Shown: positions 24,468 to 32,619 of the stretch, in pieces
Layout of the letters: each line of letters opens with the position of its first letter
Position numbering within the stretch: the first letter of the stretch is position 1
Assembly: GCF_000797495.1 (NCBI RefSeq)
Contig: NZ_JTGN01000001.1
Coordinates: forward strand, 696,072-760,071
DNA: 64,000 nucleotides
DNA from: Robinsoniella peoriensis
Lineage (GTDB): Bacteria; Bacillota; Clostridia; Lachnospirales; Lachnospiraceae
Direction: 5' to 3'
Made by a program: the position numbers and the translations under genes
The notes under the pieces: generated by a model
Database searches by the model: none
Seen by the model: the letters and a program-made list of their open reading frames with translations, nothing else
Told to the model about the DNA's origin: nothing

Positions 24468-26135
24468 TTACTGTGCTGCTCCATTCGCGGTATTTGGATC
24501 TGTTGGTGCCTCAATCGGCGGCTGTCCATTTGCATCCGGCTGGGGCGCCTCCGTTACAGGCGGCTGATTCGGATCCGGAGGTGTCTGCGGGTCGGAAGGC
24601 GTCTGGTTTGGCTCTGTCTGAGGTGCATCCGTTGTAGGTGTCTGATTCGGATCCGTAGATGGTGTCTGGGGCTCACTGGCCGGCTGTGTCTGAGGCGTGG
24701 ACGCCGCGCCGCTGATCGCTGCCTGAACCGCATTTAAATCATTTGCGGCAATCGCATTGCTGATCGCTGCTGCCTGATTCGGGTCCGCCGTAGCTGTACC
24801 AACTTCATAACCTAACGGGGCTGCCTGATAGTAACTGGAGTTTACCTGTGTCTTGGTAGTTTCTCCGTTTTCCGTAACATACTTCCAAAGCTTTGCTTCC
24901 TTACCGGTAAGTGCACTCTGGGTCTGCTGCAGGTATCCGACATTCTGATTTGGATTGGCATACAGTGCAACTCCTTCTGCACTAAAAGTTTTCACTGTCT
25001 CACTTACATATTCCAGCACCCGGTCAGCAGGTCTTGTCTCATGACCGTAAATCGTAAAAGTAAGTTCGCCGCCATATGCCGATCCTGCCAGATAGATCGG
25101 TGCATCCGTATTGTTTACAAATACAAGATCCATCAATCCTTCTGCAATAGCTGCATCCATGGACGGTTCTACATAAGTAACAATCATTGTGTGATTCGAT
25201 CTTTCCGTTACATCCAACTCCGCCAGCAGCAATGCATTGTATAACGTAGTGGAAACCTGACAGATACCTCCGCCATAGCTGTCTACTACTCTGCCACTCT
25301 CATAAGAAGGTGCCATTTCATATCCATTTTCAGCATTAAAAGGTACCACTGCATCTGTAACAGAGAAGCTTTCTCCTGGATAAAGCAAATGTCCGTTCAG
25401 CAGTTCCGCTCCTCTTTCTACATTCTGGTTTCTTCCTGTGGTAGAACCATAGTATGTAGTATAAGTTCCCAGAACATCTTCTACCTTTGACAATTCTTCA
25501 TCTGAAAATTTAGGCTTATCCTGATTCACGGAAAGTGTAACCGTTCCCGATTCTCCCTTAAAATCACTGTTCATATAATTGGTAATCGCATATACCGAAT
25601 CTTCAACGTTGATTTTCTGTCCGATGACACCGGGTACAACCTCAAACTCGCCATTTTCTCTGGTAAGGCTGCCCTCCTGCGCTTCTTTTTCAAATACTTT
25701 GCATTTTGTCTCTACATAATTGCGGGCAGTAGAAGCATCCGCAGTATATTCCAGTTCAAATTTTGCAGGCTCATGCTGCAAATCTTTATTTTCTTTATAA
25801 CGCTTAATCAGATTACCGGCTTTTCCCAGTTCTAATGCCTGTTCCACCACATCTGTATTCGCCCATTTAGCTCCCAGCTCCCCTGCTGTTGCCGTTGCCG
25901 TATCTGTGCCTACCTGAAGCGTAATAGAAGCCGATTCCATTTTTGCAACTTCTCCTTTTACTGCTTCTTCTGCCTGATCCTTTGTCATTCCGGATACGTC
26001 AACATCACCAATATACACGCCTTTGTTAATCGTTCCGTCGGACTGTTCCGCATTGGCGGACAGGATACTTCCCCCGGCTGCCAATACCGCTGTCAGAACT
26101 ACAGCAGGCAAAACCACCTTATTCCACTTATTCAT
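24468..26135 (-). CDS. VanW family cell-wall-associated protein with Pro/Thr-rich tail
   Basis: Secreted or membrane-anchored 555-residue protein. An N-terminal hydrophobic segment ends in an SANAEQ-like cleavage site. Two putative peptidoglycan-binding (PG_binding_4-type) segments follow (about 35-230). Then comes the VanW domain (about 240-370), with LYPGESFSVTDAV, GGGICQVSTTLYNA and the conserved RSNHTMIV. The last 80 residues are a disordered TDPNQTP/PQTP repeat tail. VanW proteins occur with vancomycin clusters but are common in clostridia without them, and their activity is unknown. ATG 26135 is preferred to 26141 because the AGAAGGGG site is then 8 nt away instead of 2. The upstream small gene ends only a few bases before. 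Confidence 0.9.
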   Translation of the reverse strand: MNKWNKVVLPAVVLTAVLAAGGSILSANAEQSDGTINKGVYIGDVDVSGMTKDQAEEAVKGEVAKMESASITLQVGTDTATATAGELGAKWANTDVVEQALELGKAGNLIKRYKENKDLQHEPAKFELEYTADASTARNYVETKCKVFEKEAQEGSLTRENGEFEVVPGVIGQKINVEDSVYAITNYMNSDFKGESGTVTLSVNQDKPKFSDEELSKVEDVLGTYTTYYGSTTGRNQNVERGAELLNGHLLYPGESFSVTDAVVPFNAENGYEMAPSYESGRVVDSYGGGICQVSTTLYNALLLAELDVTERSNHTMIVTYVEPSMDAAIAEGLMDLVFVNNTDAPIYLAGSAYGGELTFTIYGHETRPADRVLEYVSETVKTFSAEGVALYANPNQNVGYLQQTQSALTGKEAKLWKYVTENGETTKTQVNSSYYQAAPLGYEVGTATADPNQAAAISNAIAANDLNAVQAAISGAASTPQTQPASEPQTPSTDPNQTPTTDAPQTEPNQTPSDPQTPPDPNQPPVTEAPQPDANGQPPIEAPTDPNTANGAAQ

Positions 26136-26150
26136 CTTCATTTCCCCTTC

Positions 26151-30113: not shown

Positions 30114-31847
30114 TTATCTATAAGCCGTCTTCAATGCCACAGCCAACACCTTAGGGTTCTTCTTATACTGTGTAACCGGACAGATTTTCTTATTGATCCG
30201 CAGCAGTTTATAGATTGCAGTTCTTGCAGCCCTCACCGAATATTCCTCTGTAAATACCATATCTTCCGGAATTTCAACGAACTGACTGATCATAGCAAAA
30301 TTAGTGGAATTGCCAGGCACTACTTTTGGTCTGTCTGTCATTTTTCTTGGTTCGAACTGTGAATCAATATATGGCATCATACATGGGATTACATTTATAA
30401 CGTCTTCCATAATCTCATCAATCTTATCTTCAAAATGCAGATGATGAAGCAGTTCGGTCAATAACTCTTCGCCTGTACAATCTCTCATTGCCTTTGGTAC
30501 ATAATCCCCAACTTTATCCGTATACAGTCCGTATCCCCAGAAAATAGTCTGGTCGGCCGGCTGGTTTTTGAAATGAGGTTGTGCTGCTACGACAATACTC
30601 ATTAACCAGTTGGAATCCTTAAAGGTCATCAGCGCACCGCTTCCGGGTATATTGGTTGAGAATTTTTCAATCATCTTTAACAGCTTATTGCCTTTACAGG
30701 TAACCGTAAAGCTTTCCCAGTTAGTCTCTTCCGGTTTTGTGAAGAATGGTGCTGGATTTCCAAGACCATCCTTTTTTGCAGCCACTTTCTTCCACAGTTC
30801 ACCGGAAATCGGATTCTCCGGTTTATATTCTGCCGGAGTATTGAAATCACCAAGTGTTGCACAATCCGTCATACAACCGTTTGTCATAATACACAGATCG
30901 CCTTCTTTTAAGGTTACGATACTTTCCTCTCCGTCTTTCAAAATGTGCATTGCAGTAGCCGTGATAGAATACCCTTCTGCAAAATCAATATCCGTTACGG
31001 TTGCATTGGTTACAAAATCCACACCATGTGCTTCCAGATAGGAGCGAATCGGCAGGATAACAGAATCATACTGGTTAAACTGAGTCCTGGTCACACCTTC
31101 CAATGTCTCAATTCTTGGGAATTCAAAAATCATTCTTTCCATATAGCGTTTGAATTCAAATAAGCTGGACCATTTCTGGAATGCAAATGTCGTCTGCCAC
31201 ATATACCAGAAATTCGTCTCGAAGAAATGCGGCGTGTCTTTGAACCACTCCAGAATGGTCATGTCATCCAGTTCACTTTCCGGAGTGATCATTAATTTTC
31301 CAAGAGTCATACGGTCGTCATTGTTAAATCCCATACTCTTAACATCCTGAATTACACCGTCTTTATCGATAAGACGTGCCTTAGCATGGGTCGGATGCGC
31401 ATGGTCAAAGCTTAAAATCTCTTCGGTTACACTCTTCCCGGGATACTCCAGAGATGGAATACTTTTAAATAATTCCCAGAAATTTTCATAAGTTTCTTCA
31501 TTTAACATACGTCCGCCACGGCATACAAATCCTCCTGCCGGTGTACCGATTCCGTCGTTACTGCCTCCAAGAATGTGCATTCCTTCGTAGATATGGATGT
31601 TCTCACCCTTAAAATGTCCGTCTCTGATTGCATAAGCTGCCCCTGCCATAGAAGCCAGCCCGCCGCCTACAAAGTGAATCTGTTTATCACCATGGTCTAT
31701 TTCTTCATTAAAATCATATTCATAGTCTTCCTGCTGTTTGTTCTCTTCTTTTTGATCTCTGGATTTCTTATAAGCGGTTGCTGCTACTGCTGCACCTCCT
31801 ATGATAACGCCTGTTTTCACTAATTTTTTCCATGTTTTCTTAGCCAT
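30114..31847 (-). CDS. ohyA: oleate hydratase (myosin-cross-reactive antigen family)
   Basis: FAD-dependent hydratase adding water to the cis double bond of unsaturated fatty acids, for example oleate to 10-hydroxystearate, often a detoxification step in gut bacteria. 577 residues. The FAD site is VGGGLASMAGAAYAIRDG (about 57-75), and typical blocks include PSLEYPGKSVTEEI and NFWYMWQTTFAF. The family motif RGGREME reads RGGRMLN, so the catalytic Glu (E122 of the Elizabethkingia enzyme, from memory) is Met, as reported for some actinobacterial hydratases. An N-terminal Lys-flanked hydrophobic segment (about 9-25) may anchor it in the membrane, which is unusual. ATG 31847 is preferred to 31853 because GAGG lies 8 nt away. 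A TetR gene lies upstream. Confidence 0.92.
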   Translation of the reverse strand: MAKKTWKKLVKTGVIIGGAAVAATAYKKSRDQKEENKQQEDYEYDFNEEIDHGDKQIHFVGGGLASMAGAAYAIRDGHFKGENIHIYEGMHILGGSNDGIGTPAGGFVCRGGRMLNEETYENFWELFKSIPSLEYPGKSVTEEILSFDHAHPTHAKARLIDKDGVIQDVKSMGFNNDDRMTLGKLMITPESELDDMTILEWFKDTPHFFETNFWYMWQTTFAFQKWSSLFEFKRYMERMIFEFPRIETLEGVTRTQFNQYDSVILPIRSYLEAHGVDFVTNATVTDIDFAEGYSITATAMHILKDGEESIVTLKEGDLCIMTNGCMTDCATLGDFNTPAEYKPENPISGELWKKVAAKKDGLGNPAPFFTKPEETNWESFTVTCKGNKLLKMIEKFSTNIPGSGALMTFKDSNWLMSIVVAAQPHFKNQPADQTIFWGYGLYTDKVGDYVPKAMRDCTGEELLTELLHHLHFEDKIDEIMEDVINVIPCMMPYIDSQFEPRKMTDRPKVVPGNSTNFAMISQFVEIPEDMVFTEEYSVRAARTAIYKLLRINKKICPVTQYKKNPKVLAVALKTAYR

Positions 31848-31928
31848 AATCATTACCTCATTTCTTTGTTTTGCCAGTTTGAATTTACTTTGTTTTCTCT
31901 TTTTCTTTTATTGTTCCCTTATGGCTAA

Positions 31929-31957
31929 ATTATAAAACAGGCAATTCAAAATGTAAC
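31929..31957 (-). promoter_or_regulatory. candidate ohyA promoter
   Basis: TATAAT (31934-31929) with GTTACA (31957-31952) 17 bp upstream on the minus strand, about 75 nt before ohyA. The -35 is only 4 of 6. It lies inside the inverted repeat at 31937-31978. Confidence 0.5.
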
Positions 31958-31978
31958 TAGACACTTTGAACTGCCTGT
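31937..31978. promoter_or_regulatory. inverted repeat overlapping ohyA promoter (candidate TetR operator or terminator)
   Basis: Arms ACAGGCAATTCAAA and TTTGAACTGCCTGT (14 bp, one mismatch) with a 14-bp spacer. They cover the -35 and spacer of the ohyA promoter, as expected for repressor binding. On the minus strand the hairpin is followed by TTTTATAATTT, so it could instead terminate tetR transcription, or do both. Confidence 0.5.
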
Positions 31979-32019: not shown

Positions 32020-32574
32020 TTAATTACCGCTGTATCTATCATAAGCAGCTTTTTCACTGCTCAGAACAAGCCCCTTCATAAACTTCACAAATACTTCCGG
32101 TTCTTCTTTCATGCCACGTTTCATCCAGTCAATCACAGACCCGCAGGCTCCGTGGGCAAAAAATCCCGCATAGAATTTCTTATCCGCTTTGGAAAGTCTT
32201 TGTCTCATATCAAGTGCTTCGATTGCTTCCCCGAAAAGTTCTGTTGTTACGTGAAATAGATGTTCCTGAAAGTTATCCTGTGCATAACGGATGGTATTTT
32301 GGTAGAAATAACTTTCCGCTCTTATCCTGATCAGCATCTTACACAAATGTCCGTCCCAGTTATCAAAGTCAATTCCTTTTACCAGGTCTGCAAAAATATC
32401 CTGATAGTATACCCAGTTCAGAAGTTCGTACTTATCCTGAAAATGATAGTAGAAAGTCTGTCTGTTATAGCCGCTCACTGCGGTAATATCCGATACGGAT
32501 ATCTTATCAAAAGGCTTTTTCCTCGCAAGCTGTTTTAATGCCTGGCCCATATCCGCTTTCGCATTTGATTCCAT
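32020..32574 (-). CDS. TetR/AcrR family transcriptional regulator
   Basis: DNA-binding regulator of 184 residues. The N-terminal TetR helix-turn-helix is clear (ISVSDITAVSGYNRQTFYYHF), followed by an all-helical ligand domain of about 120 residues. The type resembles DhaS-like TetR proteins. ATG 32574 is used because GGGAGG lies 8 nt upstream; the in-frame GTG three codons earlier overlaps that site. It lies upstream of ohyA in the same direction with a 170-bp gap containing an inverted repeat, so control of ohyA by fatty acids is a reasonable inference. A perfect palindrome TTAAAACGTTTTAA spans its stop codon (32010-32023). Confidence 0.9.
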   Translation of the reverse strand: MESNAKADMGQALKQLARKKPFDKISVSDITAVSGYNRQTFYYHFQDKYELLNWVYYQDIFADLVKGIDFDNWDGHLCKMLIRIRAESYFYQNTIRYAQDNFQEHLFHVTTELFGEAIEALDMRQRLSKADKKFYAGFFAHGACGSVIDWMKRGMKEEPEVFVKFMKGLVLSSEKAAYDRYSGN

Positions 32575-32619
32575 ATAACGCACCTCCCAACTTACCGGAA
32601 GCTACATCCGATTCTGTAG

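What the first reader, a model, noticed from the sequence alone, without database searches (positions are those of the whole stretch)
30114..31978. Oleate hydratase with a Met at the catalytic Glu position and an N-terminal membrane segment
The family motif RGGREME reads RGGRMLN, so the Glu thought to activate water is replaced by Met, as recalled for certain actinobacterial enzymes. A Lys-flanked hydrophobic helix at about 9-25 is not part of classical oleate hydratases and would anchor it where fatty acids arrive. The expected substrate-Tyr block FWYMW is kept.
Basis: partly seen in the sequence, partly recalled or inferred. Interest (0 to 1): 0.5.

Follow-up and report, generated by a model that had tools for sequence, protein, structure and literature searches.

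The report
Methionine-type oleate hydratase with N-terminal tether
A gut-type bacterium carries a normal enzyme that adds water to unsaturated fatty acids; it belongs to a known branch that does this without the usual catalytic glutamate, and it has a short greasy tail that probably ties it to the membrane.

Summary
Its activation loop reads RGGRMLN, and a Lys-flanked Gly/Ala-rich stretch lies at residues 14-28. Both features are known in kind: the Met equals Met77 of R. erythropolis OhyRe, and Met-type ("clade II") enzymes without the C-terminal membrane domain, some with an N-terminal basic/hydrophobic helix, were described in Bacillales in 2024. It is not HFam3-like: the FAD lid is short. 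Beyond the finding: (i) the tether arose at least twice, in the Met clade and separately in Glu-type Lachnospiraceae enzymes, where the old start codon is now Ile in 10 of 11; (ii) Met116 travels with Thr222 (110/113), Arg256 and Val421; the S. aureus counterpart of Thr222 (Met186) holds the catalytic water by its backbone carbonyl; (iii) a TetR gene often sits upstream, with an inverted repeat over a promoter-like site. Activity, topology and the role of Thr222 are untested. New member of a known kind; modest interest.

The parts
30114..31847 (-). Met-type oleate hydratase CDS, 577 aa from the ATG at 31847 (579 aa from the ATG at 31853)
   Evidence: PF06100 681.5 bits; NF010584 751.7 bits, cut-off 567; 5odo E 9.7e-149; model pLDDT 90.9, Z 53.2 and 1.2 A over 507 residues to 5odo; Shine-Dalgarno spacing read
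31770..31814 (-). Lys-flanked Gly/Ala-rich hydrophobic stretch, residues 14-28 (numbering from the ATG at 31853)
   Evidence: sequence; composition scores; low-confidence helix 17-41 of the model, residues 19-43 here
31686..31769 (-). charged linker, residues 29-56, between the hydrophobic stretch and the FAD domain
   Evidence: 28 residues; low pLDDT in the model
31494..31520 (-). activation loop region, residues 112-120 RGGRMLNEE, with Met116 at the Glu position
31188..31190 (-). Thr222, equivalent of S. aureus Met186, whose backbone carbonyl holds the catalytic water
   Evidence: alignment; paper PMC7948970
31143..31145 (-). Tyr237, equivalent of Em Tyr241 and Sa Tyr201
31929..31957 (-). 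promoter-like site GTTACA-17-TATAAT
   Evidence: 6 such sites in the stretch, shuffles mean 8.5, so no more than chance by itself
31937..31978 (-). 18-nt inverted repeat with a 6-nt spacer, candidate TetR operator (or terminator of the TetR gene)
   Evidence: better than all of 20 shuffles
32020..32583 (-). TetR-family regulator, probable partner gene
   Evidence: PF14278 and PF00440; same arrangement in Listeria and in 58 of 126 loci with enough flank

Best explanation
[quoted passage not shown] The hydrophobic, non-amphipathic N-terminal stretch, with Lys on both sides and a 28-residue linker, tethers the cytosolic enzyme to the inner face of the membrane; this clade lacks the C-terminal membrane-binding domain (tether inferred). 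Catalysis does without the loop Glu. The water is held by the carboxy end of helix alpha-7 and probably the hydroxyl of Thr222, the proton comes from the buried substrate carboxyl, and Met116 packs against the flavin and carbocation (inferred). The adjacent TetR protein probably controls the gene through the inverted repeat over the promoter-like site (inferred). Shown here: family, predicted fold, Met position, missing C-terminal domain, N-terminal stretch, gene pair. Not shown: activity, FAD binding, topology, regulation.
For: Family and fold: (all oleate hydratases at VIA Z 41-53, next family Z 25). Met116. The C-terminal tail after residue 563 is 16-18 aa in 104 of 104 Met-type rows; 39 of 41 Glu-type rows have 39-78 aa, and the other two (L096, L124) run into their contig ends. 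N-terminal stretch: 70 of 104 Met-type rows by script, plus 5 whose start the script misplaced; two or more Lys/Arg within 6 residues after it in 81 of 88 rows; hydrophobic moment median 0.07 against 0.09 shuffled, so not amphipathic. Thr222: 110 of 113 Met-type rows against Met in 50 of 50 Glu-type; Arg256 111/113 against Phe 46/50; Val421 112/113 against Thr 44/50. Literature: the alpha-7 carbonyl and the substrate carboxyl contribute in SaOhyA; M77E and V393T both hurt OhyRe, and V393 is window V421. TetR gene immediately upstream in 42/94 Met-type and 16/32 Glu-type loci, against 1/95 and 0/23 downstream.
Against: No activity or localisation data. The window's own stretch is at the weak end for a membrane span (1.19; median of 88 relatives 1.67; 49 of 88 reach 1.6), and the model gives it pLDDT about 40-64. 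Lys on both sides leaves topology open. Glu-type enzymes with the same kind of stretch still keep the C-terminal domain (17 of 41), so the stretch is not simply its replacement. Met and Thr222 differ across one deep branch of the tree (type needs one change), so their co-occurrence is close to one event, not repeated coupling; one Met-type row (Hymenobacter) has Met at 222, one Val, one Leu. No coordinates were available to measure where Thr222 points.
Confidence: 0.66

Rival explanations
1. A different acidic residue takes over the job of the missing Glu: Glu119/Glu120 in the longer loop (MLNEE), or Glu244 on the helix after Tyr237.
For: Met-type loops are usually one residue longer; Glu120 is Glu in 100 of 105 Met-type rows, and Glu244 is Glu in 105 of 105 in the first set.
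Against: Glu119/Glu120 are not kept (Natrinema, Nostoc). In the wider set Glu244 is Met, Leu or His in 4 of 113 Met-type rows, and the extra loop residue is missing in the same four proteobacterial rows, so neither is general.
Confidence: 0.2
2. The N-terminal stretch is a Sec signal or signal anchor, and the enzyme works outside the cell.
For: The basic start and Ala-rich core resemble a signal (sequence); fatty acids arrive from outside.
Against: 81 of 88 relatives have two or more Lys/Arg within 6 residues after the stretch, which opposes export; the VanW protein in the same window shows what a plain leader looks like; no lipobox Cys follows the stretch (sequence). No signal-peptide predictor was run.
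Confidence: 0.08
3. The N-terminal stretch does not touch the membrane; it is a disordered or oligomerising tail.
For: Low pLDDT, weak hydrophobicity in this member, and classical dimeric enzymes use an N-terminal helix for dimerisation (PMC8994360, passages).
Against: Two lineages converge on the same make-up, 12-25 uncharged Gly/Ala-rich residues between Lys clusters, non-amphipathic.
Confidence: 0.2
4. The protein is a relative that no longer hydrates oleate, or prefers another substrate or position.
For: Residues aligned with Em Thr436 and Asn438 (substrate-site role recalled; Thr role also) are Val421 and Ala423 here.
Against: OhyRe shares Met77 and Val393 and is active (read); fold and family-invariant residues are intact.
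Confidence: 0.12

Closest known systems
Clade II OhyA of Bacillales (Listeria, most Paenibacillus), PMC11669549
   Same: No loop Glu, no C-terminal membrane-binding domain, some members with an N-terminal basic/hydrophobic helix; Listeria enzyme about 68% identical and with the same kind of TetR gene upstream
   Different: Published for Bacillales only (no hit for 'Clostridi' in the text); the window's nearest named relatives are clostridial
Rhodococcus erythropolis OhyRe (5odo, HFam3)
   Same: RGGRMLNEETYEN loop, Met77, Val393, Thr at 222, short C terminus; Z 53.2
   Different: OhyRe has a 25/27-residue FAD lid with GXXXG; the window has a short lid with GGSNDG
S. aureus OhyA / L. acidophilus LAH (HFam2) and E. 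meningoseptica OhyA (HFam11)
   Same: MCRA fold, loop Arg residues and Tyr201/Tyr241 kept
   Different: Glu82/Glu122 in the loop, Met186 at the water site, C-terminal extension
Glu-type Lachnospiraceae-family enzymes with an N-terminal stretch (L100-L102, L105, L106, L108-L111 and others)
   Same: Same kind of Lys-flanked Gly/Ala-rich N-terminal stretch
   Different: Glu in the loop, C-terminal domain kept, linker median 60 aa against 25; separate origin on both trees

Membership tests
Oleate hydratase / MCRA family (PF06100, NF010584) | Scores above curated cut-offs over nearly the full length | tested here: met
   681.5 bits (cut-off 23), 751.7 bits (cut-off 567)
Oleate hydratase / MCRA family (PF06100, NF010584) | Fold of solved oleate hydratases | tested here: met
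   Predicted model: Foldseek 5odo_A E 2.6e-69; VIA Z 53.2, 1.2 A over 507
Oleate hydratase / MCRA family (PF06100, NF010584) | Active-site Tyr (Em Tyr241, Sa Tyr201) | tested here: met
   Window Tyr237; Tyr in 147 of 148 rows
Oleate hydratase / MCRA family (PF06100, NF010584) | FAD-dependent hydration of oleate | not testable with these tools
   No assay
Clade II (Met-type) OhyA | Loop Glu absent | tested here: met
   Met116
Clade II (Met-type) OhyA | No C-terminal membrane-binding domain | tested here: met
   17 aa after residue 563, as in 98 of 104 Met-type rows
Clade II (Met-type) OhyA | Falls with Met-type enzymes in a tree | tested here: met
   Met type needs one change, SH-aLRT 98; in the second tree with the type-defining columns masked
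HFam3 (OhyRe) | Met in the activation loop | tested here: met
HFam3 (OhyRe) | Extended 25/27-residue FAD lid with GXXXG | tested here: not met
   Short lid GGSNDG in the alignment (criterion read)
HFam1 (HyED) | At least 62% identity to HFam1 members | not testable with these tools
   HyED sequences not held; PMC8403116 says most Met-bearing sequences are HFam1
Classical Glu-type (HFam2/HFam11) | Catalytic Glu in RGGREM | tested here: not met
Membrane-anchored protein | Hydrophobic span long and hydrophobic enough | tested here: inconclusive
   15 residues, 19-residue mean 1.19, under the usual 1.6 (recalled rule)

The most novel reading that the evidence does not exclude
[quoted passage not shown] In Clostridia both chemistries were independently fitted with the same kind of N-terminal membrane tether, in the Glu lineage by writing over the old start codon.
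Probability: 0.3. Interest if true: 0.55.

Novelty: new member of a known kind. Interest (0 to 1): 0.34.

Why it matters
How the Met-type enzymes activate water is named as unresolved in a 2021 review (PMC8403116, passages read). The co-segregating residues Thr222, Arg256 and Val421 turn that into a short mutagenesis list. The two separate gains of the same kind of N-terminal stretch suggest that bringing the enzyme to the membrane is under selection in clostridial and gut bacteria, where 10-hydroxystearic acid is of interest as a host-active metabolite (start of the abstract of PMC13423806 seen).

Tried and rejected
Glu244/Arg247 as a universal replacement for the loop Glu: perfect in the first 105 Met-type rows, dropped after Phyllobacterium, Paraburkholderia, Bradyrhizobium and Polymorphobacter enzymes lacked them.

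A single origin of the tether inside the Met clade: one change in the first tree, but two in the second (total 3), where Paenibacillus-type rows without it nest inside. Only "at least two origins overall" is claimed.

Tether as a simple substitute for the C-terminal domain: rejected as a rule, since 17 of 41 Glu-type rows have both.

Pfam on the N-terminal 58 residues: DUF3824 just at its cut-off and two sub-threshold hits, taken as compositional. Cassette elsewhere in the own genome: one weak hit, E 0.42, a small acidic protein.

ABC-transporter pair upstream as a functional partner: a similar transporter gene lies near ohy in 9 relatives of about 140 loci, not pursued.

Rows dropped: the truncated second copy of L077; L113 (odd relative) and L124 from the trees, and rows over 86% or 80% identical to a kept one; only 47 of 64 intergenic stretches (40-350 nt) were scored.

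Papers not reached: the original OhyRe paper is not held. Schmid 2016 (HyED) was not read.

Full report
WHAT IS THERE. The finding lies on the minus strand: an open frame of 579 codons at 30114..31853. GAGG at 31859-31856 sits 8 nt before the ATG at 31847 and only 2 nt before the one at 31853, so the protein probably starts MAKKTWKK (577 aa; read). Numbers below count from the ATG at 31853. 31854-31978 is upstream DNA. The protein matches PF06100 (681.5 bits) and NF010584 oleate hydratase (751.7 bits, cut-off 567). Its best solved relative is 5odo, R. erythropolis OhyRe (E 9.7e-149). The genome holds one copy. A model from 68 aligned sequences has mean pLDDT 90.9 and superposes on 5odo with Z 53.2 and 1.2 A over 507 residues.

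THE METHIONINE. Met116 aligns with Em Glu122, Sa Glu82 and OhyRe Met77. In 148 aligned rows this column holds Met in 105, Glu in 42 and a gap in 1. The replacement is known: a review says Met is strictly conserved in HFam3 and M77E is much less active (PMC8994360, passages and the mechanism section); another says about 30% of sequences have Met, mostly HFam1 (PMC8403116, phylogeny section); Neff et al. 2024 say that Bacillales clade II lacks the Glu (PMC11669549, sections 3.1 and 4). The window is not HFam3-like in its lid, which is short with GGSNDG.

WHAT GOES WITH THE METHIONINE. In a wider set of 164 rows (113 Met-type, 50 Glu-type counting the 7kax E82A mutant, 1 other), Met116 goes with Thr222 (110 of 113; Met in 50 of 50 Glu-type), Arg256 (111/113; Phe 46/50) and Val421 (112/113; Thr 44/50). 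Thr222 aligns with Sa Met186, whose backbone carbonyl at the end of helix alpha-7 holds the catalytic water (PMC7948970, passages and discussion). Val421 is OhyRe Val393, and V393T also damages OhyRe (PMC6013536, passages). The S. aureus paper argues that the substrate carboxyl also helps to form the hydronium ion, and that E82A keeps some activity. From this I infer that Met-type enzymes hold the water by the helix end and Thr222 and rely on the substrate carboxyl. Against over-reading it: the type changed once on each tree, there are three exceptions at 222, and I had no coordinates. Glu244 and Arg247, perfect in the first 105 Met-type rows, fail in four proteobacterial enzymes.

THE N-TERMINAL STRETCH. 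Residues 14-28 carry no charge and lie between Lys clusters, followed by a 28-residue linker. By a fixed rule, 70 of 104 Met-type and 17 of 41 Glu-type rows have such a stretch. Five more Met-type rows (L067, L070, L073, L074, L081) have it upstream of a start that my script misplaced, and one (L008) is cut by its contig. The other Met-type rows, such as Paenibacillus, Alkaliphilus, Nostoc, Natrinema and Streptomyces, begin just before the FAD fold. Among 88 rows with the stretch (70 Met-type, 17 Glu-type and the odd relative L113), 81 have two or more Lys/Arg within six residues after it, which argues against export; none is amphipathic beyond shuffles. The window's own stretch is weak (19-residue mean 1.19; median of relatives 1.67) and is modelled with low confidence. 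A membrane tether is likely, not shown. Neff et al. already describe an N-terminal helix with basic segments in longer clade II enzymes of Bacillales and suggest membrane contact.

TWO ORIGINS. On a tree of 93 rows (kept from 147 after removing near-copies) the Met type needs one change and the stretch two, one in each clade. On a second tree of 79 of 162 rows, with type-defining columns masked and more phyla, the type again needs one change and the stretch three: one in the Glu clade, two in the Met clade. So at least two origins; the root was placed between the types by hand. In the Glu-type enzymes with the recognisable motif, 15 without the stretch start MYYSxG with ATG, while in the 11 with upstream coding sequence the same codon is ATT, ATC or ATA in 10 and TTT in one (one of the 11, L121, is cut by its contig). 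The extension therefore runs over the old start site. I found no description of this in print: searches 'oleate hydratase' with Lachnospiraceae (5 papers, listing and abstract starts only), and those.

NEIGHBOURS. A TetR-family gene lies upstream on the same strand (32020-32583), as in Listeria. A matching TetR gene sits immediately upstream in 42 of 94 Met-type and 16 of 32 Glu-type loci with enough flank, and immediately downstream in 1 of 95 and 0 of 23. Between the two window genes an 18-nt inverted repeat (31937-31978) overlaps a promoter-like site; the same element also scores as a terminator. Of 47 intergenic stretches scored, 22 had a palindrome better than all of 20 shuffles, about 2 being expected.

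VERDICT. A real, intact Met-type oleate hydratase, new as a member but not in kind. The mechanism proposal and the repeated gain of the tether are the parts worth a specialist's time.

Noticed in passing
window 31937-31978: 18-nt inverted repeat over a promoter-like site between the TetR gene and the hydratase gene; long palindromes recur between these genes in many relatives.
   Followed up: partly
L113:742-2247: A PF06100 relative with the N-terminal stretch whose loop reads RSGR and whose Tyr is Phe, without internal stops: perhaps a degenerate or repurposed paralogue.
   Followed up: no
L112:850-1455 and L165 (own genome C19 near 489139): Small, very acidic proteins that begin with the same kind of MAKK...Gly/Ala stretch, so the cassette is not special to hydratases.
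   Followed up: partly
L168, L169, L170, L171: Met-type enzymes of alpha- and betaproteobacteria without the extra loop residue and without Glu244/Arg247: possible intermediates between the two types.
   Followed up: partly
L177 and L178: Glu-type plasmid enzymes of Acinetobacter and Rhizobium with N-terminal extensions of 57-60 aa and long C-terminal tails, without the hydrophobic stretch in the part printed.
   Followed up: no
window 24468-26141: VanW-domain protein with a plain signal-peptide-like leader ending ANAEQ, useful as an in-window contrast.
   Followed up: partly
L003 and L022: Niameybacter massiliensis carries two distinct Met-type copies on one contig.
   Followed up: no
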